A stretch of 26,629 bases of DNA, taken from a virus. Below the pieces are notes generated by a model. The model saw only the letters and a list, made by a program, of their open reading frames with translations. It was not told the DNA's origin and did no database searches. This document shows positions 3,656 through 17,632 of this stretch, one piece after another; the first letter of the stretch is position 1; each line of letters begins with the position of its first letter. The position numbers were made by a program, and so were the translations under genes. The DNA is taken from positions 1-26,629 of the IMG/VR virus record IMGVR_UViG_3300031877_000321. One strand, 5' to 3'.

Positions 3656-4010
3656 ACTTGCACGAGAACTCGGACGGTTTCCGTTTACGAAACTGAAGCC
3701 ACGGTCTTTCAGGGTCCACATAGCGAGTTTGACAGAACAAGAACTCGAGAAGCATCCTGTGAGAATCTGGATTGAAACCGAAGATATCGCGAAAGTCGTG
3801 AAGATTGCTGGCTCCGCTCGAATCCTGCGCACCTACCCTCACCTCGACCTGATCTATTTGGAAGCTTACGCCAGTCAACTTGCTTCACTTGTTGCGAGCG
3901 ACCTCGTCCGTTCTGTCTGGAACGATCTTCCTGTGAAGGCTGAGGGCTGCCTTGTGGTCACTCAAACGGATTCACGTGCCAGACCTGTGGAGGCTTGGCC
4001 TCACAGGTGA
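3645..4010 (+). CDS. Subtilase propeptide-like protein (separate frame)
   Basis: About 121 residues from a GTG at 3645, preceded by GGAGGG at 3631-3636. The segment from about residue 20 to 100 (FRVHIASLTEQELEKHPVRI, then a helix, ILRTYPHLDLIYLEAYA, and LVRSVWND near the end) reads like the inhibitor-I9-type propeptide of subtilisins. These fold the protease and block its active site. The catalytic domain follows in another frame (from 3952). After about codon 102 this frame runs into sequence that looks like out-of-frame protease, so the last 20 residues are probably not native domain. Either the two parts are separate polypeptides or they are joined by a +1 shift within 3937-4010. Confidence 0.55.
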   Translation: MASELARELGRFPFTKLKPRSFRVHIASLTEQELEKHPVRIWIETEDIAKVVKIAGSARILRTYPHLDLIYLEAYASQLASLVASDLVRSVWNDLPVKAEGCLVVTQTDSRARPVEAWPHR

Positions 4011-4890
4011 ACGCATCCGCATCGGCATAGTCGGCACCGGGATCGATCTCACGCATCCAGACTTTCGCAATAACTCGATCAACGCGTTCAGTCTTCTAGG
4101 CCCGGATGTCAGCGACCTGGTCGGTCACGAGACCGGCATCGTCTGGCTGATCACGCGTATCGCTCCGCGAGCGGATATGATAGTTGCAAAGGACCGTGTC
4201 GGCGCTTACGGGTACATGCATCACGTCATCGATGCGTGCGAGCGCCTGCGCCAACTTGGCGTCCAGATCGTGAACTTGTCGGTCGCAACGGACTTTCCCA
4301 CAGATGGCACGGATCCAATCAGTCGTGAAGTGAACTACCTTGGTGATAATGGCGTTCTTGTGGCATGTGCCGCAGGAAACAAAGGGCCGAACTTCCAGAC
4401 GATTGGTGCGCCGGGCGCCGCGGAAGAAGCGCTCACGGTCGGCAAGACCAACGATCATGATCAAGTAAGCTGGGATAGCTCACGCGGCCCCACGCTTGAC
4501 GGACGACTGAAGCCTAACTGTGTCGCTCCTGGTTCACGAATAATTGCCGCGTCGCCGCTCGCGTTGCGTAAAGGTGCATACTACATTTTCGACTGCACCA
4601 GCTATTCGGTTCCGCATGTCACAGGCATCTTGGCGCTCCTGAAGCAAGCCTACCCAGATGTCACGGCAGGCGACTTGAAGCAGGCAATCATCGCAGGGTG
4701 TGAGCCTGCGAACCCGTCTCTGCTTTCACGCATTGTTGGCGCTCCGGGTCTGCGGAAGCGCCTCGCGACGAAACTTCGAACAGCTCTCGCAAGCCAGGCG
4801 GATCCTCGGTGGAGTATCGGCGCTGGCCGCGTGAACGCGTACCGCTCCTATGAGATGCTGAAAAATGCAAAGCAGAAGGAAACTGGTTGA
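3952..4890 (+). CDS. Subtilisin-like protease (S8), catalytic Asp replaced
   Basis: A 312-residue S8 domain. The family hallmarks are clear: GIVGTGIDLTHPDF (25-38), GHETG (58-62), VACAAGNKGPN (137-147, oxyanion Asn143), SSRGPTLDGRLKPNCVAPGS (176-195) and CTSYSVPHVTG (215-225, nucleophile Ser217). The Asp of the usual DTG is Gly28 here (codon GGC), and the HGTH motif is HETG with the putative catalytic His59 kept. So Ser, His and Asn remain but the Asp does not. It may be an inactive homologue, a decaying gene or an unusual active variant. There is no signal peptide. The TTG at 3952 has a weak GAGGG upstream; the alternative is fusion to the propeptide frame by a +1 shift. Confidence 0.8.
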   Translation: MWSLKRIHVPDLWRLGLTGERIRIGIVGTGIDLTHPDFRNNSINAFSLLGPDVSDLVGHETGIVWLITRIAPRADMIVAKDRVGAYGYMHHVIDACERLRQLGVQIVNLSVATDFPTDGTDPISREVNYLGDNGVLVACAAGNKGPNFQTIGAPGAAEEALTVGKTNDHDQVSWDSSRGPTLDGRLKPNCVAPGSRIIAASPLALRKGAYYIFDCTSYSVPHVTGILALLKQAYPDVTAGDLKQAIIAGCEPANPSLLSRIVGAPGLRKRLATKLRTALASQADPRWSIGAGRVNAYRSYEMLKNAKQKETG

Positions 4891-5215
4891 GCATCTGCTC
4901 CGCAAGCATGAACTCATACTGACGCGGGCCGTCTCGGGTCACGACCGGTTCGCAGCGCTGAAGAACCTGGAGCGAGCGGAGAAACGGTTCCTACTGTCCT
5001 TCCTCACAAGCCTCGGCGGCGGTATCTACTGGCTTACGATGGAGCTCTGGGGCCTCAACCTCAGCGATTTCGTAGGGCTTCCGATTAACCGGGTGGCATC
5101 GATCGCTCTCGGTGCCGCCGTCACAGCCACCTCAATCCTCGCTATCCTCGCGTACCTCTCAATCGGACTCGTCGTGCAGAGAGCTGTGGAAATCAAGCCA
5201 CGAGAGAGCGACTAG
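4865..5215 (+). CDS. Small membrane protein with charged N-terminus
   Basis: A 116-residue protein. A basic amphipathic N-terminal region (about 1-41) precedes two hydrophobic segments at about 42-62 and 79-104, with a short charged tail. It starts 26 bases inside the end of the subtilase gene, so translation is probably coupled. No family is recognised. It sits between the protease and a zinc-binding membrane protein as part of the envelope cluster. Confidence 0.6.
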   Translation: MQSRRKLVEHLLRKHELILTRAVSGHDRFAALKNLERAEKRFLLSFLTSLGGGIYWLTMELWGLNLSDFVGLPINRVASIALGAAVTATSILAILAYLSIGLVVQRAVEIKPRESD

Positions 5216-5217
5216 AG

Positions 5218-5571
5218 ATGAGTCGAACCGCGCCGCTCGAGGTCTGCGCTCGCTGCGAGATGTTCAAGCCAGCTACCGAGATGACGAATGTCTACGCGCG
5301 AGACGCGAACGGGCACGTCGTCTGCCTACGGATCTGCCGAACATGCGCGAGCCCTGTCCTCACATACATCGCGGGCCGCTGGCCTACGATCCCGTCAATC
5401 GATAGCGGCCGATTACTGTCGGCAGGCCTCGCCCTGGTGCTCGTGGTTCTGAATGTGATTTTCGGTATCATCATCGGACCTCCCATGGGTTTCGCTGTCG
5501 TGCTGAGCGGTATCCTGGTCGGTGCGGGGATCCTCGCGGCGGTGGCGGTGTCATGCATCCAGTCATCCTAA
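5218..5571 (+). CDS. Zinc-finger membrane protein
   Basis: A 117-residue protein. The N-terminal half has Cys10-x2-Cys13 and Cys40-x2-Cys43 (with an extra Cys36), consistent with a zinc ribbon or treble-clef-like site. Two hydrophobic segments follow at about 66-86 and 90-112. It starts 2 bases after the preceding stop and overlaps the next gene by 19 bases. No function is recognised. The membrane-tethered zinc ribbon echoes the soluble zinc-ribbon protein at 2247. Confidence 0.6.
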   Translation: MSRTAPLEVCARCEMFKPATEMTNVYARDANGHVVCLRICRTCASPVLTYIAGRWPTIPSIDSGRLLSAGLALVLVVLNVIFGIIIGPPMGFAVVLSGILVGAGILAAVAVSCIQSS

Positions 5572-6005
5572 TCATTCTCCTAGCCGTGGCCCAGGCCAGC
5601 CCAGCGGTCATGGTTACTGTGAGCACGGACCGCGGCTGGTACAGCCCAGGCGAGTCAGTCACAATCCAGATCCAAGTCGCCATGACCGAGAACCCCACGA
5701 ATATGACTTGGCTGTGGCTCTACATCGACAAGCCAGACGGACACAATGCATTGTTCATGCAGCTGAACGCCACGAATCAGACGCTAGTCTGGAATATTCC
5801 AGCCGATGCAGCTGAAGGCGCCTATACAGTCACCGTCACTTGGGATCACCGCTACAGTCAGACAGGCTTCACCGTGGAAGGTCAGCCGATCCCCGAATTT
5901 CCGCTCGCACCCTTGGTGTTGATCTTTGCCACGGCGATTGCGTTTCTTGCCATATCTCGGCGGAAAGCAAGCGCTCGTTCCGAAACTCCTGCCGCTCATC
6001 CCTGA
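5553..6005 (+). CDS. Secreted Ig-like protein with PEF-type C-terminal anchor
   Basis: A 150-residue surface protein. Residues 1-18 form a signal peptide. Residues about 20-110 resemble a macroglobulin-MG2/Ig-like beta domain (DRGWYSPGESVTIQIQV, then EGAYTVTVTWDH), with three N-glycosylation sequons (N50, N72, N75). The C-terminus has IPEF (113-116), a hydrophobic segment (117-134) and RRK (136-138). This is the layout of archaeal PEF-CTERM-like surface proteins, thought to be processed or anchored by archaeosortases. It would therefore be displayed on the infected cell, perhaps for superinfection exclusion, surface modification or egress (inference). Its anchor-coding end overlaps the methyltransferase gene by 80 bases. 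Confidence 0.7.
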   Translation: MHPVILIILLAVAQASPAVMVTVSTDRGWYSPGESVTIQIQVAMTENPTNMTWLWLYIDKPDGHNALFMQLNATNQTLVWNIPADAAEGAYTVTVTWDHRYSQTGFTVEGQPIPEFPLAPLVLIFATAIAFLAISRRKASARSETPAAHP

Positions 6006-6831
6006 GCATGTCTGCTATGTCGAGGTGTTCGGCGGAGCGGCCGCGCTCCTGCTAAACAAGCCTGCTAGCCGGATAGAAGTCTACAACGATCTTGATTCTC
6101 AGCTTGTGAATCTCTTCGAAGTCATACGCGATGATGCAGACGGGTTCCTGAGACGCGCTGACTTCTTGCTCTACAGTCGAGAGCTCTACCAGCGCTGGCA
6201 GACTGACCTCGAGAACGAGAGACAGCCGCAGGATCGCGTGGAGCGCGCCGTCAGGTTCTGGTACGTGATTCGGTCCGCGTTCGGCGCTCACCCAAGCAAA
6301 GGCTGGGCGTTCCAGAGAGCACGGCCGCGTAATTCGGCGGCCGTGGTCCAGAACGCGCTTGCGAACATTCGTGCAATCCATGACAGGCTCAAGACCGTTG
6401 AGATCGATCACCTGGACTTTCGTCGTTGCATCAAAAACCGCGACGCGGCCAGCACGTTTCTGTATGTGGATCCCCCGTACCCTGAGACGGAACAGTACCG
6501 CGCCGGCGACTTCACGCTAGAAGATCACAGAGACCTCGCCCGGATCCTTCGCGATGCAAACAGCAAGTGGCTGATGACGGTTGGCGACCATCCCGAAATT
6601 CGCAAACTGTATGTCGACTTTGATCAGGGTTCTATCACATCCGCGATGGCGGTCGAGAAAGTGATCGGCCGCAAACGCGGTCGACTGACCCACTTGCTGA
6701 TCCGCAACTATGAGCCGCCCAAGACCCCGCTGTACACAACCGTTGCGAGTCAACTACCTCTGATGGATCTGTTCGGCCTTGGTCCGTCCTCGCAAGTTCA
6801 CGGACAAACTCTGGGTACGGATGCCGCCTGA
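5926..6831 (+). CDS. D12-class DNA N6-adenine methyltransferase
   Basis: A 301-residue protein with the D12 (Dam/DpnM-like) signatures: PYLGGKQ (9-15, AdoMet-binding motif X region), EVFGGAAALL (33-42, motif I), YNDLD (53-57) and the catalytic DPPYPETEQY (182-191, motif IV). It methylates adenine in double-stranded DNA at an unknown site. No restriction nuclease is nearby, so it is an orphan enzyme, most likely protecting viral DNA from host restriction or marking it for packaging. The TTG at 5926 overlaps the surface-protein gene by 80 bases; in-frame TTG codons at 5938 and 5947 are alternatives. No clear Shine-Dalgarno decides the start. Confidence 0.9.
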   Translation: MPRRLRFLPYLGGKQALVPKLLPLIPEHVCYVEVFGGAAALLLNKPASRIEVYNDLDSQLVNLFEVIRDDADGFLRRADFLLYSRELYQRWQTDLENERQPQDRVERAVRFWYVIRSAFGAHPSKGWAFQRARPRNSAAVVQNALANIRAIHDRLKTVEIDHLDFRRCIKNRDAASTFLYVDPPYPETEQYRAGDFTLEDHRDLARILRDANSKWLMTVGDHPEIRKLYVDFDQGSITSAMAVEKVIGRKRGRLTHLLIRNYEPPKTPLYTTVASQLPLMDLFGLGPSSQVHGQTLGTDAA

Positions 6832-7306
6832 ATACATCGCCGTGCTCAAGGCGTTCGCTTTCCACTCCGGCGTTCCACTTGCGGAGTATGTGCGCGACAT
6901 CGTGCATGACCACATTCTCCAAAGAGGTGGCGCTTTCCGGGAAAGAGGTGGCGCTTTGAGAGCTCTGATTAACGCCGGAAAGGCGTGGGTCATCGCCTAC
7001 CATGGATGCGTAGCCATCGCGGCAGGTCTGCCGGGAAAGGAGAGACGCGCTGAACTCGAAAAGCTCACTTGGGAAGCTGTGAAGAAAGCGCACGAGTTCT
7101 TCGAAACCGAGGAAGCCGCCAAGAACGCCAAGTATCGAATGATGGCCCTCCAGGCCATCGCGTTGATCACCCGCGCCGAGGAGGAAATACTCGCGGACAT
7201 GGACAAGGCTGAGGTCGATCAGATCGTTCAACGCATCGAGGCGGCACTAAATGTCATGGACAAGGCTGCTGGACAGATTCCTACGAAAGCTGCTCGCAGC
7301 AAATAG
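6779..7306 (+). CDS. Possible small terminase subunit
   Basis: A 175-residue protein directly upstream of and overlapping the large-terminase ATPase gene, the usual place for the small terminase subunit that recognises DNA for packaging. Residues about 8-46 resemble a ribbon-helix-helix or helical DNA-binding start (KLWVRMPPEYIAVLKAFAFH). The rest is Ala/Glu/Lys-rich helix, which fits oligomerisation. Residues about 49-60 carry a duplicated RGGAxRE motif encoded by a tandem DNA repeat. It starts at a TTG inside the end of the methyltransferase gene. The role comes mainly from position; it could instead be another DNA-binding protein. Confidence 0.45.
   Translation: MVRPRKFTDKLWVRMPPEYIAVLKAFAFHSGVPLAEYVRDIVHDHILQRGGAFRERGGALRALINAGKAWVIAYHGCVAIAAGLPGKERRAELEKLTWEAVKKAHEFFETEEAAKNAKYRMMALQAIALITRAEEEILADMDKAEVDQIVQRIEAALNVMDKAAGQIPTKAARSK
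6921..6957 (+). repeat. Tandem 16-bp direct repeat, possible packaging site
   Basis: AAAGAGGTGGCGCTTT occurs exactly at 6921-6936 and again at 6942-6957, a 21-base period (7 codons), inside the putative small-terminase gene. Each copy begins AAAG and ends CTTT. Packaging (pac) sites of several headful phages such as P22 and SPP1 lie in or next to the small-terminase gene, and SPP1 pac includes repeats. A similar role here is inference; a simple coding duplication is the alternative. Confidence 0.4.
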
Positions 7307-8162
7307 AAAGGCCTCGGCGACCGTATCAACGGAAGCATTCGAGCGCCTGAAAGCCGTCGCTGACGAAGGTATCATAGCTTTCTGCGAGAAAGCCTTGGGA
7401 TTCGAACCCACTGAATACCAGATCGCGTTCCTAGAAGAGACAGCGCAGTTTCAGGCTCAATGCTGGAGCCGGCAATCGGGAAAGGATCACACCGCCGCGA
7501 GCAAGCTGCTATGGTATGCGGTTGAGAATAAGGGAGCACAGTACGCGGTCGTCGGGCCAAGTTTCCGACAGAGCAAACTCGTCATCCGGAAGATCAACAA
7601 CTTCCTACAGAACAAGTTGCCCAAGGACATCCCTTGGCCTGAGATCCTGGTCGGTCGAAAGACGCTGAGAACGAAGGTCCCGCTCGTCAACGGCGCGGTG
7701 ATTGAAGCTTATCCCTGCAATCCTGACACGATCCGCGGTCCAACGCTTGACGGGATCTTGGCGACCGAGTTCAACTTCGTGAAAGACGACGAGGAGATGT
7801 ATGACGCTATCCTGTTTACCCTTGGCACGACAGACGGTTTCTTCATTGCAAACTCGACACCGTGGTCCCGCGACCACACCTTCTACAAGATCATGAATGA
7901 CAGAGACTTTGAAGATTTCAAGCGGTTCCACGTGACTTGGAAGGAAGCGCTCGAACCCAAGGGGCCGCTCAAGAAGAACATCCTTGAGAAAATCAAGAAA
8001 CAACTCGCGTCTGATCCTTGGCGTTTTAGACGCGAAATGTGCGCCGAGTGGAGCGAAGATGAGTCCTGCTGGTTGTCGACGACTCTGATCGGAGGCTGCC
8101 AGGACAGTATGCTTGAGATCCGCGTGATCGATAAGCGACATAGCTTCTGGGTTGCAAACTGA
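7251..8162 (+). CDS. terL: Terminase large subunit, ATPase part (split gene)
   Basis: A 303-residue N-terminal half of a phage large terminase, the motor that pumps DNA into the head. Walker A is SRQSGKD (73-79). The Walker B region is DGILATEF (167-174), with Glu173 as the likely catalytic acid but Thr at the usual Asp. The coupling motif is NSTPWSR (201-207). WRFRREMCAEWSEDE near the end is the usual transition to the nuclease domain. The frame then stops at 8162 after a non-matching tail from about IRVIDKRH. The nuclease half is a separate frame from 8335. The ATG at 7251 overlaps the preceding gene by 56 bases. The two products may associate, or one may be lost. Confidence 0.85.
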   Translation: MSWTRLLDRFLRKLLAANRKASATVSTEAFERLKAVADEGIIAFCEKALGFEPTEYQIAFLEETAQFQAQCWSRQSGKDHTAASKLLWYAVENKGAQYAVVGPSFRQSKLVIRKINNFLQNKLPKDIPWPEILVGRKTLRTKVPLVNGAVIEAYPCNPDTIRGPTLDGILATEFNFVKDDEEMYDAILFTLGTTDGFFIANSTPWSRDHTFYKIMNDRDFEDFKRFHVTWKEALEPKGPLKKNILEKIKKQLASDPWRFRREMCAEWSEDESCWLSTTLIGGCQDSMLEIRVIDKRHSFWVAN

Positions 8163-11388: not shown

Positions 11389-12783
11389 ATGAGTTACGGT
11401 AAGGCGCCAGTCGAACGCGAATGGGATGCCGACGCTGCTGACGGACGACTGCGCTCCTGGGCAGGCGGACCAGAGAAGGAGAATGTGGACTGGGCGAAGT
11501 ACCGTGAAGGCTTCGCCTGGTACGACGCCGAGAACGCTGAGGTTTTCGGCGCCTACAAGCTCCCGCACCACGACATAATCGACAGCCGACTGAATGTCGT
11601 CTGGCGTGGTGTGGCAGCAGCAGGCGCTGTGGTCCAAGGCGGACGAGGCGGAGCCGACATCCCCGGCGCCGACATGGCCGCCGTCAAAACGCATCTGGCC
11701 CGCCACTATGAGGAGTTCGAGCGTACAGCGCCTTGGGAGCAGCGTGCTTCGGAGGCGGTTCAAGAGAGCGAGAAAGAGCCTCTCGAGAAACCTCAGGAAA
11801 AGGAGGTGGAAGAGAAAATGCCGGAAACCATCACTGAAGGGAAGGCTAGCGCAGGCAAAGGGATCGTTGCAGCTGAGGAAGTTGCCATGATGGACAACAA
11901 CCCACGCAGACAGCTACGTGAAAGCATCGTCAAGCGCTTGAAGGCGGGAAGCCTCAAGGAACAGTGGACCGCGCCTATAGGACTGACACCTGCGCCCGCG
12001 AGCCGACTCAGGAACTTCATCATCGTGAGCGAGATTCTCGTCGGCGCAGCAGGCGACACCGTCACCGTGCCTTATGTCAAGGACTTTGATCTGGACATTC
12101 TCGCGAATGTCGGTGACGCTCTAACTCCTAAGACGGGCCTGCTTGGCACCGTGACCACGACACTCAAGGAAGCCGCAGCAACCACGAATGTGCCGTACGC
12201 GGACATCGAGAAGATGAGTGAGCAGGCCATCGCCGAGCTCGAAGCAAAGTTCGAGCAAGCAGCCTACCGAGCAGAAGACAAGGAACTTGTCAATCTCCTG
12301 TATGCTGACAGCGACGTTCCTGAAGTCGACCACAGCGCCGACGACCCAGCAGACTTCAAGGCAGACTACATCGCGCAAGCACTCGGCAAGATGCTCGCGC
12401 AAGGCAAGGAAGTCAACTTCCTCGACTGCGTCCTAGTGATCAGCGCGAGCATGTATGAGAAACTGCTCGAAGACATTGCGGGCACACAGAGCCTCGCGTT
12501 TGCTAAACCAGACGCGATCCAAGACGGGCAACTCAGGCGACTGATGGGCGTCAATATCTCCATCAGCAACTATCTCCCGAGCGGAGGTACGCCCGCCAAA
12601 TACAGCGCCTACCTGATCCACCACAACGCAGAGGTTCTTACGCCGAAGCGTGAGATACTCATTGAGACTGAGCGTGACACGCAAAACCGAAAAGTCAAGG
12701 TGACAGGCTCGCATACATACGGCCGCGTCGAGCTCGACAACAAAGCCGCCGTCGAGATCAAGACAGCATTCACAACGCTGTAG
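11389..12783 (+). CDS. HK97-fold major capsid protein with N-terminal extension
   Basis: A 464-residue frame of two parts. Residues about 1-118 (REWDADAADGRLRSWA, then WAKYREGFAWYD, then FGAYKLPHHD) match a domain usually found at the end of phage head proteases, not in capsid proteins. Residues 144-464 look like a 321-residue HK97-fold capsid protein. An ATG at 11818 with AGGAGGTG at 11801-11808 (9-base spacer) would start the capsid protein alone and is very likely used. The ATG at 11389 has no good site. The frame is open upstream to 11305, overlapping the protease gene. The extension is then made either by +1 shifting from the protease or not at all. Confidence 0.8.
   Translation: MSYGKAPVEREWDADAADGRLRSWAGGPEKENVDWAKYREGFAWYDAENAEVFGAYKLPHHDIIDSRLNVVWRGVAAAGAVVQGGRGGADIPGADMAAVKTHLARHYEEFERTAPWEQRASEAVQESEKEPLEKPQEKEVEEKMPETITEGKASAGKGIVAAEEVAMMDNNPRRQLRESIVKRLKAGSLKEQWTAPIGLTPAPASRLRNFIIVSEILVGAAGDTVTVPYVKDFDLDILANVGDALTPKTGLLGTVTTTLKEAAATTNVPYADIEKMSEQAIAELEAKFEQAAYRAEDKELVNLLYADSDVPEVDHSADDPADFKADYIAQALGKMLAQGKEVNFLDCVLVISASMYEKLLEDIAGTQSLAFAKPDAIQDGQLRRLMGVNISISNYLPSGGTPAKYSAYLIHHNAEVLTPKREILIETERDTQNRKVKVTGSHTYGRVELDNKAAVEIKTAFTTL
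11801..11820 (+). promoter_or_regulatory. Internal ribosome-binding site and start of capsid protein
   Basis: AGGAGGTG at 11801-11808, nine bases, then ATG at 11818-11820, all in the middle of a long open frame. It is one of the strongest Shine-Dalgarno sequences in the window and sits exactly between the protease-type domain and the capsid domain. Capsid protein is needed in hundreds of copies, so independent initiation here would explain how it is made in excess over the upstream part. Confidence 0.65.
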
Positions 12784-13499: not shown

Positions 13500-13715
13500 A
13501 TGATGCACCCAGATGACGAGAGACTGGCGGCAAAAGTCAAGGTGAGGCCGCGAAACGTCAGGGTCTCAGCGCGAGTCTACAGAGCCGCAGAGGGCAGGTG
13601 GGTCGATCTCGGTGTGATAGCCACCACCGAGCGTAGAGTTGGAGTCATGATTAAGTTGCGGGAGGTGATCAATCGATGGCTACTGTTCTTACGCAGGTCG
13701 GGGAAGAATGGATAG
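13500..13715 (+). CDS. Small basic virion-region protein
   Basis: A 71-residue protein rich in Arg and Val with a beta-like middle (NVRVSARVYRAAEGRWVDLG). Two adjacent ATG codons (13500, 13503) follow GAGGATACG; the first is given. Its end overlaps the next gene by 40 bases and contains that gene's GGAGGTGA site. No family is recognised; position suggests a head, neck or assembly role. Confidence 0.45.
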   Translation: MMHPDDERLAAKVKVRPRNVRVSARVYRAAEGRWVDLGVIATTERRVGVMIKLREVINRWLLFLRRSGKNG

Positions 13716-14032
13716 TCGACGTGCTTGACGGCACCGCGCCGGGCACGCAGTACATTGGCTGGGGCACAGGCACAGGAACCGCCTCGAAGTCCGACACCAC
13801 ACTGTTCACCGAGGCATCGGAGGCGAGACAAAGCGCAACTCGCTCGCAACCGGTAGCTGACAAGATCCGCTACGTTGCCACTATGACGGCAGACGGCGCG
13901 AAGACCATCACAAACGCCGGTGTCTTGACCGCCTTGACCGCCGGCACCCTGATCATACACGGCGACTTCACCGGGATCCCGCTTCAGCAGAACGACCAGA
14001 TCCAGTTCACGATCGATATGGAGATCACCTAA
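13676..14032 (+). CDS. Small beta-rich virion protein
   Basis: A 118-residue protein, Thr/Gly/Ala-rich and predicted mostly beta. The motif QYIGWGTGTGTAS (about 25-37), then TEASEARQSAT and a C-terminal strand pair (LIIHGDFTGIPLQQNDQIQF), resembles a small structural protein often found in the morphogenesis region of tailed phages. The ATG at 13676 has GGAGGTGA at 13661-13668. It may be a head decoration or fibre component; the exact role is not recognised. Confidence 0.6.
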   Translation: MATVLTQVGEEWIVDVLDGTAPGTQYIGWGTGTGTASKSDTTLFTEASEARQSATRSQPVADKIRYVATMTADGAKTITNAGVLTALTAGTLIIHGDFTGIPLQQNDQIQFTIDMEIT

Positions 14033-14340: not shown

Positions 14341-14603
14341 TCGTGGTACTGGAGAATATTCGCCCCGGCTCGTTCAATGTCAACGCCGTTGACGCGAAAC
14401 TTCGCAAGAAGTTTCCGTCCCTGCTCGGCTGGAGTTACGGCTTCCTAGATGATGCTTTGACGCTTGAGTTCCCAAATTCCGAAGTCGAGACCGTCATTGA
14501 GGACAAGATCTCCGATGCGCTCTCAAAAGTGAGGGCGGACTATCCGGATGCCAGACACCGCGAGAGCCTACTCAAGGGCGGAGCTGTACGTTGGGCCACC
14601 TGA
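14337..14603 (+). CDS. Small hypothetical protein
   Basis: An 88-residue protein. An N-terminal strand (MIVVLENIRPGSFNVNAVDA) leads into a short helix (AKLRKKFPSLLGW), a strand, and a charged C-terminal helix (VIEDKISDALSKVRADY). ATGA at 14337-14340 couples it to the preceding gene. The frame stays open upstream to 14199, but that part is antisense to reading-frame logic and overlaps the real gene at 14050, so the ATG at 14337 is chosen. No family is recognised. Confidence 0.55.
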   Translation: MIVVLENIRPGSFNVNAVDAKLRKKFPSLLGWSYGFLDDALTLEFPNSEVETVIEDKISDALSKVRADYPDARHRESLLKGGAVRWAT

Positions 14604-15340
14604 GAGACATACTGGGCGGCCGCAAGGTCGTATCTGTCACGATGCAGACGCCGCAGGAGACACTCGGGTCAGCTGTATATCTTCCCACAAGCGAGCCCGC
14701 GACGCCGCAGGTCAGTTACACAGTCGCCAGCGGTGATTTGCCCGCCTTCAATGTTGCGCCGGATAGTAAGAAATGGATGGCGTACATGATTGCCGCGGGG
14801 AGCGCCGTCACAGCAGCAACGCTCTACTGGCGAATGAAGAAGAACGGCTCCTCTGTGGCCAACGGCTCCCAAGCTGTGACGGCCGCCTACTACTACACGC
14901 AGCACAGTTACTTCTACGATGTGGCAGTAGGTGATGTCCTAGAGATCGCATTATGGTCGAGTGTGACCAACACTAAGTACGACTACAAGGCTTATCAGAT
15001 TCAACCGACGCGAGTCTTGCCCAAGAACGGGGCGCCGATTCTATCACCCTTCAACATCACGACCCTCACCGCGTATCCAACTTTAACTTCGGGAAACCCA
15101 GCGGTATTCAGCACGGTTGGCTTCTATGTCTATCATGATGACGTACAGTTTCTGGAACGTTCGACGACGGTAAGCTTCCGTTCACTACACCCTGGCCTGA
15201 CATACGGGCTCGGTCGCCTGTACCGCGGAGATATGAACTATCAAAATTCGGGACATGTTATCACAGGCGCTACCTATCGTCCGTACTATTGCAAGCAGTA
15301 CATCCCCGATGGATTCGTTTTCCGCGCGATGAAGATTTGA
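14591..15340 (+). CDS. Beta-rich virion protein
   Basis: A 249-residue protein rich in Tyr, Thr, Ser and Ala with many short strands. It has no signal peptide. Residues about 40-140 read like a jelly-roll or lectin-like fold (YTVASGDLPAFNVAPDSKKW, then VGDVLEIALWSS). It starts at a TTG 13 bases inside the preceding gene. The composition fits a fibre, spike or decoration protein exposed on the particle. No family is recognised. Confidence 0.55.
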   Translation: MGHLRDILGGRKVVSVTMQTPQETLGSAVYLPTSEPATPQVSYTVASGDLPAFNVAPDSKKWMAYMIAAGSAVTAATLYWRMKKNGSSVANGSQAVTAAYYYTQHSYFYDVAVGDVLEIALWSSVTNTKYDYKAYQIQPTRVLPKNGAPILSPFNITTLTAYPTLTSGNPAVFSTVGFYVYHDDVQFLERSTTVSFRSLHPGLTYGLGRLYRGDMNYQNSGHVITGATYRPYYCKQYIPDGFVFRAMKI

Positions 15341-15367: not shown

Positions 15368-17338
15368 ATGCCGGTCTCTGAGTACGGCGAAGCCGTTGCC
15401 ACATCTCTTGACGAATTAGGCTTTGCCAATGCCAACGGTTTACTCGAAGACGGAAGGATTGCTGCTGCGGCAGGCGCGCAGCTCTACTACAAGTCCCTAT
15501 CAGTCACCGAGATCGCCACCTCCCTCGTCAAACGCAAGACTAGCAAGACCCTCACTCTCAGTGAGATCGCCAGCTCATCCGTCAAAAGGAAGACCGCCAA
15601 AACCTTCAGCCTGACCGAGGCTTCGTCGCCGTCGCTCGCGCGGTCGGCGCTCTTCAAGCGCGGCCTTTCAGTACTTGAATCCGCGGCAGCGTCACTCATC
15701 AGACAAGTTGCATTCAAGCGTGTCCTATCCGCTATCGAAGTTGCGGCTACCACGATCGGACGGAAGACATACCGACTCCTCAGCGTCGCCGAGTCCGCAG
15801 TTACCGCGCTGCAGAAGAAGACCCTGCTCAGCTTGGTCGTTACGGAAATCTCACCGCTGAGCCTTGCCGCGAAGCGGCTCTACAAGCGCGCCTTGGGCGT
15901 AGTCGAATCCGCCGCCGTCACATTGGGTCGAGGTCTCTCGCTGAAACGGGCTTTGTCCGTGGCGGAAGCCACCGTTGCCTCGTTGGTCCGTGAGGCGGCA
16001 TGGTACCGGACGCTTGCAGTGACCGAGGTCACCATAGCAACGCTGAAACGAAGTATCTCAACGCTCCTCAGCCTTGTCGAGGTCGCATCGATAACCCTGG
16101 CACGGAAGGCGACATGGTACCGAACTTTAAGCGTCCTGGAGTCATCCGCCGTCGGCCTGCTCAAGAAAACGATCCTCGCCCTGCTTGTTACCGAGATCTC
16201 GAACATTGCGCTCGGGACCAAGCAGCTGCTGAAACGCGTTCTCTCAGCGGTGGAACTTAGCGCCGCCTCGTTGGCTCATCAAGCGATAAGATATCGCTGG
16301 CTCATCGCGACAGAAATTGCAGTGCTCGCTCTCGCGCCAACGAGCCTATTCAAACGGCTCCTGTCGGTGAGCGAGATTGCCGTACCCGCTCTGAAGCGGA
16401 CTACCTCGCGGCTGCTAATCGTCATAGAGGCTGCCTCAATCTCCCTGGCGCGGCAGATACTCTTCAAACGCACGCTCTCAGCGATTGAAACGGCAGCCGC
16501 GTCGCTCCTCCATCAACTCACCCTCAAACGAACTCTATCCGTCATGGAGGTCGCATCCGCCAGGATCGAACGGAAGATATCGCGGCTCCTAATCGTCGCG
16601 GAATCATCTCTGACATCGCTTGCCCGCACAGCGCTGAGATACCGAAGTCTCATCGTGACAGAAGTCGCGGTTGCTGGCATCGAGCGGAAAATATCGCGTC
16701 TCCTGAGCATCGCAGAGTTCTCGTTAGTCGCTCTGCAGAAGAGGGTCGTCATCACGCTCGCTCTGGGAGAACTCTCAGTCCTTACGCTTGGAGCGAGGGG
16801 TCTGTTCAAGCGTGTTCTCTCGGTGATTGAGTTCGCGTCGCTCGCTCGCAAGTTGGCAATCTACCGCAGGCTGACGGTCACAGAGATCACGGTAGCCTCC
16901 CTCAGCCGGATCAAGAAACTTTTCCGAACGCTAACAGCCGCCGCCGTCACGATTGCCATACTCGCCCGAAGTGCAGCGCTTCATATCCTCATATCCACGA
17001 GCGCCATCGCGCTCGCAGCGGTCACGCGAAAGATCACAAAAACTCTATCCCTCACTTCCTCGACACTGGAAGCGCTTGCCACCAGGCAGCTGCTGAAACG
17101 AGCCTTCACACTCACCATGACAACGATCACAAACATCGTCTATCGACAACTTCTGCGACGCGCACTGAATGTCACCGCCCAGGCTGTAGTCGCCGTTGCG
17201 CTGACTTTCATAGGCGCCTTACGGGCGATCATTCGCCTGCTGGCGCAGGTTCTAGGTCTCGGAATGACTGGCGAGCAGTTGGGCGTTAGCTTAACCGCGA
17301 GCCAGTACGGCCTCACATTGAGATATGAAAAAGAATAG
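15368..17338 (+). CDS. Virion protein of about 30 short repeats
   Basis: A 656-residue protein. After 39 non-repeat residues come about 30 imperfect units of 18-20 residues, consensus near KR-x-LSV-x-E-x-A-x-x-x-L-x-R. Each unit has hydrophobic alternation, one central Glu and Lys/Arg at the boundaries, so the protein is very basic overall. The last five units lose the Glu. A 44-residue tail ends in LGVSLTASQYGLTLRYEKE. Such regular units suggest a solenoid or a fibrous rod. The ATG at 15368 has GGTGA 7 bases upstream. Location among virion proteins points to a fibre or structural scaffold; no named family is recognised. Confidence 0.75.
   Translation: MPVSEYGEAVATSLDELGFANANGLLEDGRIAAAAGAQLYYKSLSVTEIATSLVKRKTSKTLTLSEIASSSVKRKTAKTFSLTEASSPSLARSALFKRGLSVLESAAASLIRQVAFKRVLSAIEVAATTIGRKTYRLLSVAESAVTALQKKTLLSLVVTEISPLSLAAKRLYKRALGVVESAAVTLGRGLSLKRALSVAEATVASLVREAAWYRTLAVTEVTIATLKRSISTLLSLVEVASITLARKATWYRTLSVLESSAVGLLKKTILALLVTEISNIALGTKQLLKRVLSAVELSAASLAHQAIRYRWLIATEIAVLALAPTSLFKRLLSVSEIAVPALKRTTSRLLIVIEAASISLARQILFKRTLSAIETAAASLLHQLTLKRTLSVMEVASARIERKISRLLIVAESSLTSLARTALRYRSLIVTEVAVAGIERKISRLLSIAEFSLVALQKRVVITLALGELSVLTLGARGLFKRVLSVIEFASLARKLAIYRRLTVTEITVASLSRIKKLFRTLTAAAVTIAILARSAALHILISTSAIALAAVTRKITKTLSLTSSTLEALATRQLLKRAFTLTMTTITNIVYRQLLRRALNVTAQAVVAVALTFIGALRAIIRLLAQVLGLGMTGEQLGVSLTASQYGLTLRYEKE
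15485..17203 (+). repeat. Degenerate 54-60 bp coding repeats (about 30 units)
   Basis: The DNA of the repeat protein is built of units of 54, 57 or 60 bases, in phase with codons. The protein consensus is much better kept than the DNA, so the units are old duplications under selection for the protein pattern and not a fresh expansion. Two unit types partly alternate: one with YR or KR before LSV, and one with a shorter SRLL or STLL lead. Confidence 0.75.
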
Positions 17339-17353
17339 GGGCTGCTGGCACCC

Positions 17354-17632
17354 GTGCCAAACCTGGGGGAAACCGTCAGGATCCTGGCGTCCATCACCGA
17401 CTACGATGGCGAAGCCATGAACCCTGACACGCAAGAGGTTAAGGTGTACGATCCAAGCGGCGCGCTGAAACATACAGAGACATCGCCGACCAAGAAGGCC
17501 GACGGTATCTACTATGTGCTTTACACGTTTCCAGGCGACGGCGCTGTAGGCAACTGGACCGTCAACTGGAAAATTGTCAAGTGGAACGCGGTGCGGTCAC
17601 GACGTCTTTCGGTTCCGGTGACGAGCGCCTAG
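17354..17632 (+). CDS. Ig-like beta-sandwich protein
   Basis: A 92-residue single domain: strands around VRILASITDYDGEAM, EVKVYDPSGALKHTETSPT, DGIYYVLYTFPGDG and GNWTVNWKIV. This pattern (a loop with YDPSG, then GxYxYxYxxP) is that of macroglobulin-like or Ig-like domains found on many viral surface proteins. The GTG at 17354 begins 15 bases after the repeat protein. It probably decorates the particle or is a fibre subunit. Confidence 0.6.
   Translation: MPNLGETVRILASITDYDGEAMNPDTQEVKVYDPSGALKHTETSPTKKADGIYYVLYTFPGDGAVGNWTVNWKIVKWNAVRSRRLSVPVTSA

What the first reader, a model, noticed from the sequence alone, without database searches (positions are those of the whole stretch)
15368..17338. 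Giant array of about 30 18-20-residue repeats in a virion-region protein
The unit KR-x-LSV-x-E-x-A-x-x-x-L-x-R recurs about 30 times with strict alternation of hydrophobic and charged positions. The protein is strongly basic, has one conserved Glu per unit that disappears in the last units, and has unique ends. I do not recognise a named repeat family. A solenoid or fibre with salt-bridge ladders, or a DNA/glycan-binding filament, would fit. Length is likely tuned by unit number.
Basis: seen in the sequence. Interest (0 to 1): 0.7.

Follow-up and report, generated by a model that had tools for sequence, protein, structure and literature searches.

The report
Repeat stalk of a virus fibre
The gene encodes a stalk built from 30 copies of an 18- or 20-residue beta-strand-like unit, most likely the backbone of a fibre on the outside of a tailed virus of archaea, and the same unit turns up unnamed in dozens of bacterial viruses and in giant surface proteins of archaeal cells.

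Summary
ORF 15368-17338 (656 aa) carries 30 units at residues 40-615, each 18 or 20 residues long, never 19. No named repeat family matches. Direct searches found nothing, but the 118-aa gene upstream (13676-14032) passes Pfam's cut-off for gp80, the fibre-I protein of Ralstonia phage GP4. Of 48 related viral loci with room to look, 43 carry the same kind of array within a few kb. In several relatives the next gene is GP4's fibre-tail adaptor gp77, and in L062 that adaptor is fused to the array's C-terminus. Adhesin-like domains sit at the N-terminus. Cultured mycobacteriophage Faith1 has adaptor, bead and a periodic protein in a row. Best reading: the stalk ('rope') of a GP4-type adaptor-bead-rope fibre, base at the C-terminus, length set by unit number. 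The unit also occurs in giant proteins of 15 further genomes among 201 sampled from a Bathyarchaeota MAG's class; most of those read in full have a signal peptide and a membrane anchor. The fold is beta, but AlphaFold gives a meander for six units and a poor solenoid for twelve, so folded rod or extended rope is open.

The parts
15368..17338 (+). Repeat protein (656 aa): candidate stalk/rope of the fibre
   Evidence: ORF; no Pfam/PHROG/PDB match; relatives
15485..17212 (+). Array of 30 units of 18 or 20 residues (residues 40-615)
15368..15484 (+). Unique N-terminus (39 aa); relatives carry adhesin-type domains here
16919..17212 (+). Last five units (26-30), without the conserved Glu
17213..17335 (+). 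Unique C-terminus (41 aa) with a hydrophobic/basic stretch (ALRAIIRLLAQVLGLG); likely virion-proximal end
   Evidence: Gp77 adaptor fused at this end in L062
13676..14032 (+). 118-aa bead protein, Pfam PF23140 (GP4 fibre I gp80), 29.5 bits against cut-off 27
13500..13715 (+). Small ORF (71 aa), apparent equivalent of the N-terminal extension fused to the bead in L009, L010, L018
14050..14340 (+). 96-aa ORF between bead and stalk, no match
14591..15340 (+). 249-aa ORF just upstream of the stalk; weak match to phrog_792 major tail protein (E 0.001); possible separate payload, unproven
17354..17632 (+). 92-aa Ig-like (MG2-type, below cut-off) protein just downstream; positional equivalent of the gp77 fibre-tail adaptor
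   Evidence: adaptor in relatives

Best explanation
The protein is the stalk ('rope') of a surface fibre of a tailed virus, made by a module of the kind seen in phage GP4: an Ig-like adaptor that docks on the neck or tail, a small bead protein (gp80 family) and a long repeat protein. The array's C-terminus faces the virion through the adaptor and its N-terminus points outward, carrying an adhesin domain in relatives (perhaps supplied here by a separate small protein). Each 18/20-residue unit is one beta element; units differ by exactly two residues because the side-chain alternation of a continuous beta structure must be kept. Fibre length is set by the number of units. Shown here: the repeat, its parity, linkage to gp80- and gp77-family genes, the array-adaptor fusion, adhesin-type domains at the N-terminus of relatives. 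Inferred: that the protein is in the virion, that beads assemble along it, and the orientation.
For: The gene 1.3 kb upstream is a gp80-family protein above Pfam's cut-off, and 14 of 19 relatives match that family at E<=0.01. 43 of 48 bead loci with more than 3.5 kb downstream have an 18/20 array nearby; the detector of 1705 sense ORFs and 1 of 1435 antisense ones, that one being the array of the L089 genome read in inverted orientation. The next gene is the gp77 adaptor in L089 (3.8e-30, and PDB 8jou_D at 3e-7), L007, L082, L085, and the adaptor is fused to the array's C-terminus in L062. Mycobacterium phage Faith1 gp22-gp23-gp24 are adaptor (1.2e-28), bead (7.8e-30) and a protein with lag 20/18/40 periodicity. 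The LSH1 paper (PMC13243795) finds three co-occurring proteins: a GP4-fibril-like dimer, an Ig fold and a payload with an unexplained, badly predicted C-terminal region beside a lyase-like N-terminal domain. The same array forms the bulk of giant proteins in the class of a Bathyarchaeota MAG, of which most read in full have a signal peptide and C-terminal membrane anchor, so it serves as an extracellular element there too. 503 of 528 unit spacings in the family are even.
Against: The adaptor-position gene of the window matches MG2, not gp77. The GP4 genome is not in the collections here, so its rope could not be compared; the phrase 'elongated rope protein' rests on my recollection of the GP4 abstract, which is not held. 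The array profile finds no PDB chain. Related arrays in cells mostly lack a bead gene (bead in 3 of 201 genomes, array in 16), so the array does not need beads. The periodicity in Faith1 gp24 is weak (z about 4-5) and it does not match the array profile. No structure of the oligomer could be computed.
Confidence: 0.7

Rival explanations
1. A self-standing folded beta rod (solenoid or meander) that is a fibre shaft by itself; the gp80-like protein only anchors or caps it and does not coat it. The 30 units would then make a rod of roughly 14 nm (30 x 4.8 A) instead of an extended strand of about 190 nm. This is a sub-question of the best explanation (both are stalks), so the two confidences overlap.
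For: Cellular arrays occur without beads. AlphaFold folds six units on their own as a long-stranded antiparallel meander (pLDDT 83 in the best model) and twelve units with solenoid-like matches.
Against: Only 2 of 5 six-unit models are confident; the 12-unit model is poor (pLDDT 66) and does not agree with the six-unit topology. The tight linkage to the bead gene asks for a role of the bead.
Confidence: 0.35
2. A membrane- or lipid-associated amphipathic beta sheet (outer-membrane-barrel-like or apolipoprotein-B-like) that acts on the host envelope.
For: Best structural neighbours of the six-unit model are the apoB-100 beta belt (Z 10.0, rmsd 3.7, 101 aligned), vitellogenin and outer-membrane barrels; K/R and aromatics flank each strand.
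Against: Conserved Glu in mid-strand, hydrophobics on both faces, unit number from 6 to 37 with no even-number rule; in archaeal cell proteins the array sits outside a separate C-terminal membrane helix. Z near 8-10 may mean only a common arrangement.
Confidence: 0.07
3. An internal basic virion protein that binds packaged DNA.
For: Strong excess of K+R, even more in L063 (25.6% K+R).
Against: Lectin-like, glycine-rich and LRR-type domains on the same chain in relatives, fibre-type neighbours, and secreted cellular relatives.
Confidence: 0.04
4. A low-complexity, largely disordered chain without a defined fold.
For: Poor AlphaFold confidence for twelve units; the LSH1 authors also suspected hallucination.
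Against: Strict 18/20 spacing over 528 intervals, column-specific conservation, no odd lags; six-unit model confident in two of five.
Confidence: 0.05

Closest known systems
Ralstonia podophage GP4 fibre I (gp80, PF23140; adaptor gp77, PF23148; PDB 8JOU)
   Same: Bead-family and (in relatives) adaptor-family genes flank the array gene; the array is in the place expected for a linking protein; the GP4 protein is described as a fibril connecting an adhesin to the collar (PMC13243795)
   Different: Window virus is a tailed virus of probable archaeal host; its adaptor-position gene is a different Ig-like protein; the GP4 linking protein was not available for comparison
Alishewanella phage LSH1 gp34-gp35-gp36 module (PMC13243795)
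   Same: Three genes always together: payload with N-terminal adhesin/lyase domain and poorly predicted C-terminal region, GP4-like dimeric fibril protein, Ig fold
   Different: LSH1 sequence not in the collections, so 18/20 periodicity of gp34 could not be tested
Anabaena myophage A-1(L) neck fibre gp82-gp81-gp80 (PMC10966104)
   Same: Bead-chain neck fibre; about 6 nm per bead, close to one extended 18-20-residue unit
   Different: Trimeric beads joined head to tail without a described rope; no repeat array
phrog_23524, phrog_5211, phrog_14730
   Same: Match arrays of L034/L016, L007 and L017
   Different: Unknown function, repeats not described; no match for the window protein itself
Mycobacterium phage Faith1 gp22-gp23-gp24
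   Same: Adaptor, bead and a periodic (20/18) protein in a row, in a cultured phage
   Different: Repeat sequence does not match the array profile; annotated head protein / minor tail protein
Giant proteins in the class of the L089 Bathyarchaeota MAG (e.g. L119, 2027 aa)
   Same: Same 18/20 unit, matched by a profile made only of viral arrays (whole-protein E 1e-45 to 1e-71; shuffled copies none)
   Different: Cell-encoded, signal peptide and C-terminal membrane anchor where read, usually no bead gene

Membership tests
GP4-type adaptor-bead-rope fibre | gp80-family bead gene in the same gene cluster | tested here: met
   window 13676-14032, PF23140 29.5 bits, cut-off 27
GP4-type adaptor-bead-rope fibre | gp77-family fibre-tail adaptor next to it | tested here: inconclusive
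   Window 17354-17632 is Ig-like (MG2 26 bits, below cut-off) and does not match PF23148; met in relatives L089, L007, L082, L085, L062; not every window ORF was scanned
GP4-type adaptor-bead-rope fibre | elongated chain that links the beads | not testable with these tools
   No multimer prediction; GP4 genome not found in the collections
GP4-type adaptor-bead-rope fibre | component of the virion | not testable with these tools
   Metagenomic contig, no particle data
18/20 array family defined here | unit spacing 18 or 20 with K/R at columns 0 and 14, L at 2 and 12 | tested here: met
Any Pfam or PDB repeat family | profile or sequence match of the array | tested here: not met
   No Pfam or PDB match of the window protein above chance, none of the array profile in the PDB; PHROGs match only relatives
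Outer-membrane beta barrel / lipid-binding beta sheet | one hydrophobic face towards lipid, the other polar | tested here: inconclusive
   Hydrophobics on both faces and Glu mid-strand; fold neighbours of moderate Z

The most novel reading that the evidence does not exclude
Each unit is one bead-binding strand on an extended continuous beta rope, so the gene counts beads: the number of 18/20 units sets the number of gp80-like beads and hence the fibre length (about 30 beads and 190 nm here), a molecular ruler for surface fibres; and the same ruler repeat has been exchanged between archaeal viruses and archaeal cell-surface proteins.
Probability: 0.25. Interest if true: 0.85.

Novelty: new variant of a known kind. 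Interest (0 to 1): 0.6.

Why it matters
It gives a sequence signature (18/20 spacing, K/R-x-L ... L-x-K/R) for a stalk that annotation pipelines miss or mislabel (minor tail protein, hypothetical, even antisense ORFs). It offers a concrete answer to an open remark in the LSH1 paper about an unexplained region that always accompanies a GP4-like fibril, links a fibre module across viruses of bacteria and archaea, and shows the same repeat in proteins of archaeal cells. Unit number against fibre length is directly measurable in a cultured phage.

Tried and rejected
Direct search for relatives of the array in viral contigs, phages and the PDB found nothing: the sequence is too degenerate and partly low-complexity, so relatives were reached through the neighbouring 118-aa gene instead. 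A first alignment with overlapping segments was useless and replaced by non-overlapping ones. TRF finds no DNA repeat. A gp80-array fusion that would show direct contact was sought and not found. Several GP4/Gervaisevirus accession numbers were guessed and are not held. EBPR-type distant bead relatives (Pro-Nvie1, phiA008, vB_Ade_ART) have other genes next to them, not arrays of this kind. Slicko01 (first 50 kb only) shows no array there. The apoB and barrel matches of the six-unit model were considered and set low because twelve units give a different answer.

Full report
WHAT IS THERE. The ORF at 15368-17338 encodes 656 residues. A position-specific parse trained on the family gives 30 consecutive units from residue 40 to 615, with 12 intervals of 18 and 17 of 20 residues and no other length. 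Lag analysis of the window protein alone gives z = 6.8 at 18, 11.9 at 20, 10.2 at 38 and 10.3 at 58, and no peak at 19, 37 and 39; none of 200 shuffles is called an array. There is no DNA-level tandem repeat. The conserved Glu at position +6 is present in units 1-25 and absent from 26-30.

FIRST SEARCHES. Pfam, PHROGs, the PDB, phage records and viral contigs give no convincing match to the protein itself. The window is a 26.6-kb IMG/VR record with terminase, portal, capsid, head-tail adaptor and tape measure genes in usual order.

THE WAY IN. The 118-aa gene at 13676-14032 has at least 80 relatives in viral contigs. Most of these contigs carry, close downstream, an ORF with the same 18/20 periodicity. 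Counting loci with more than 3.5 kb downstream, 43 of 48 have an array (42 downstream, one upstream in L063). The detector called 57 of 1705 sense ORFs and 1 of 1435 antisense ORFs, the latter a true array in a locus of opposite orientation. Unit number ranges from about 6 to 37. The detector was trained on part of these proteins, so its counts are descriptive; the lag analysis is independent of it.

PARITY. Averaged over 33 family proteins, similarity peaks at lags 18, 20, 36, 38, 40, 54, 56, 58 and 60 and is flat at odd lags. In a parse that allowed any spacing from 15 to 25, 503 of 528 were even (204 of 18, 284 of 20). Length changes of exactly two residues keep the in/out alternation of a continuous beta structure. 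This follows from general knowledge of beta structure and is the firmest structural statement available.

STRUCTURE PREDICTION. Six units (window 16229-16576) with 56 segment rows gave pLDDT 82.8 and pTM 0.67 in the best model, each unit one strand of 13-17 residues, but only two of five models were confident. Fold neighbours are long-stranded amphipathic sheets: apoB-100 beta belt Z 10.0, vitellogenin, outer-membrane barrels. Twelve units with 16 rows gave pLDDT 66 and solenoid-like weak matches. I conclude beta structure and leave the arrangement open. The LSH1 authors obtained similarly poor beta-helix models for the region that I think is equivalent (PMC13243795).

WHAT THE PARTNERS SAY. 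The 118-aa protein passes the Pfam cut-off for gp80, 'Podophage GP4 fiber I protein' (29.5 bits against 27); 14 of 19 members match. The gene directly after the array, often overlapping it by a few bases, is Ig-like in several loci: MG2-type in the window (below cut-off), BppU_N in L010, and gp77, the GP4 fibre-tail adaptor, in L089 (3.8e-30), L007, L082 and L085. L089's copy matches GP4 chain 8jou_D directly at 3e-7. In L062 the gp77 domain is fused to the array's C-terminus (1.4e-13), which puts the adaptor, and so presumably the virion, at that end. N-terminal to the array, relatives carry ConA-like, glycine-rich, LRR-like and other adhesin-type domains; only the Laminin_G_3 match of L058 was scored, the others are read from sequence. 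A small ORF upstream of the bead (13500-13715 in the window) resembles the part fused to the bead in L009, L010 and L018.

CULTURED EXAMPLES. The adaptor family is common in cultured actinophages (166 records match). In Mycobacterium phage Faith1, gp22 is adaptor (1.2e-28), gp23 bead (7.8e-30) and gp24 a 762-aa protein with a glycine-rich region and lag 20/18/40 periodicity (z 4-5). It does not match the array profile, so it is an analogue or a distant relative. GP4 itself was not found in the collections. I recall from its abstract (J Mol Biol 2023, 435:168258, not held) that fibre I consists of gp80 dimers linked by an 'elongated rope protein'; a paper that is held confirms that the GP4 protein forms a dimeric fibril connecting an adhesin to the collar (PMC13243795).

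CELLS. A Candidatus Bathyarchaeota MAG holds the whole module with a similar gene order (L089, bead 71% identical), and a window gene (5553-6005) has a C-terminal ending that I associate with archaeal surface proteins; an archaeal host is likely but not proven. In that MAG's class, 16 of 201 sampled genomes match the array profile, 15 of them in proteins of about 800-2700 aa. The five read in detail have 56-84 units at 18/20 spacing; N-terminal hydrophobic signal-like segments are seen in L118-L121 and a C-terminal membrane helix with basic stop in L118, L119, L120 and L122. A profile made only from viral arrays scores them at 1e-45 to 1e-71; no shuffled copy scores at all, and of their reversed copies only that of L122 appears, at E 0.08. 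The reversed window protein does score 1.5e-25, so part of the profile's signal is composition and near-palindromic pattern; real and reversed cellular sequences are nevertheless far apart. The bead occurs in only 3 of 201. So the array appears to be an extracellular stalk element that works with or without beads. Whether viral and cellular arrays share descent or converged on the unit was not settled.

HOW IT MOST LIKELY WORKS. The array projects an N-terminal adhesin away from a C-terminal base: the adaptor on virions, a membrane helix on cells. In viruses the bead protein probably assembles on or with the array. An extended unit of 18-20 residues measures about 6.0-6.8 nm, close to the roughly 6.25 nm per bead of the A-1(L) neck fibre (16 beads in about 100 nm, PMC10966104); this is suggestive only, because A-1(L) beads are trimers without a known rope. 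A folded rod would be about 14 nm for 30 units, an extended rope about 190 nm, so electron microscopy decides.

VERDICT. Real, widespread and unnamed, but its role is readable as the stalk of a known kind of fibre: new variant of a known kind.

Noticed in passing
L104 (MW202615.1) about 4710-7700 +: A 997-aa sense reading frame with an 18/20 array is missed in the GenBank record; an antisense ORF (UOF79353, 5774-7585 minus) is annotated instead.
   Followed up: partly
L091 10001-12807 (Moraniibacteriota MAG contig): Bead gene and glycine-rich array protein lie among cellular genes, beside a Tat-signal-like protein and a TatC-like gene; a prophage remnant or a cell-owned fibre in a candidate-phyla bacterium. 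Only this genome of about 360 sampled in the phylum matches the array.
   Followed up: partly
L118-L122 (genomes of the L089 MAG's class): Giant proteins (1.5-2.6 kaa) with 56-84 units of the same repeat, mostly with signal peptide and membrane anchor.
   Followed up: partly
L007, L089 array C-termini; L124 gp24 and L126 gp25 C-termini: A short repeat of the kind R-x-hydrophobic-x-V-x-x-E/D-x-R, about 10 residues, closes the protein in archaeal-virus relatives and in mycobacteriophages Faith1 and Bernal13.
   Followed up: no
L011, L016, L019, L023, L026, L031, L034, L070 array C-termini: Many members end in a TFIPG-like linker and a short basic, possibly amphipathic stretch (e.g. VKRVIKIQINKWL, RSKFKRFVKLIKRR).
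   Followed up: no
window 11389-12783: The capsid ORF starts with a segment whose relative in Thermus phage Riverbug lies under 'head maturation protease' (56% identity over residues 12-118).
   Followed up: no
window 3952-4890 and 5926-6831: Subtilase (PF00082, 4.7e-34) and D12-class adenine methyltransferase (PF02086, 1.8e-23) upstream of the terminase; similar ORFs upstream in L089.
   Followed up: partly
window 5553-6005: Secreted Ig-like protein ending in IPEFP plus a transmembrane helix and RRK, an ending I associate with archaeal surface proteins.
   Followed up: no
window units 7, 13, 23 (15821, 16169, 16745): These three units share an aberrant form without K/R at position 0 and with similar neighbours, suggesting block duplication within the array.
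   Followed up: no
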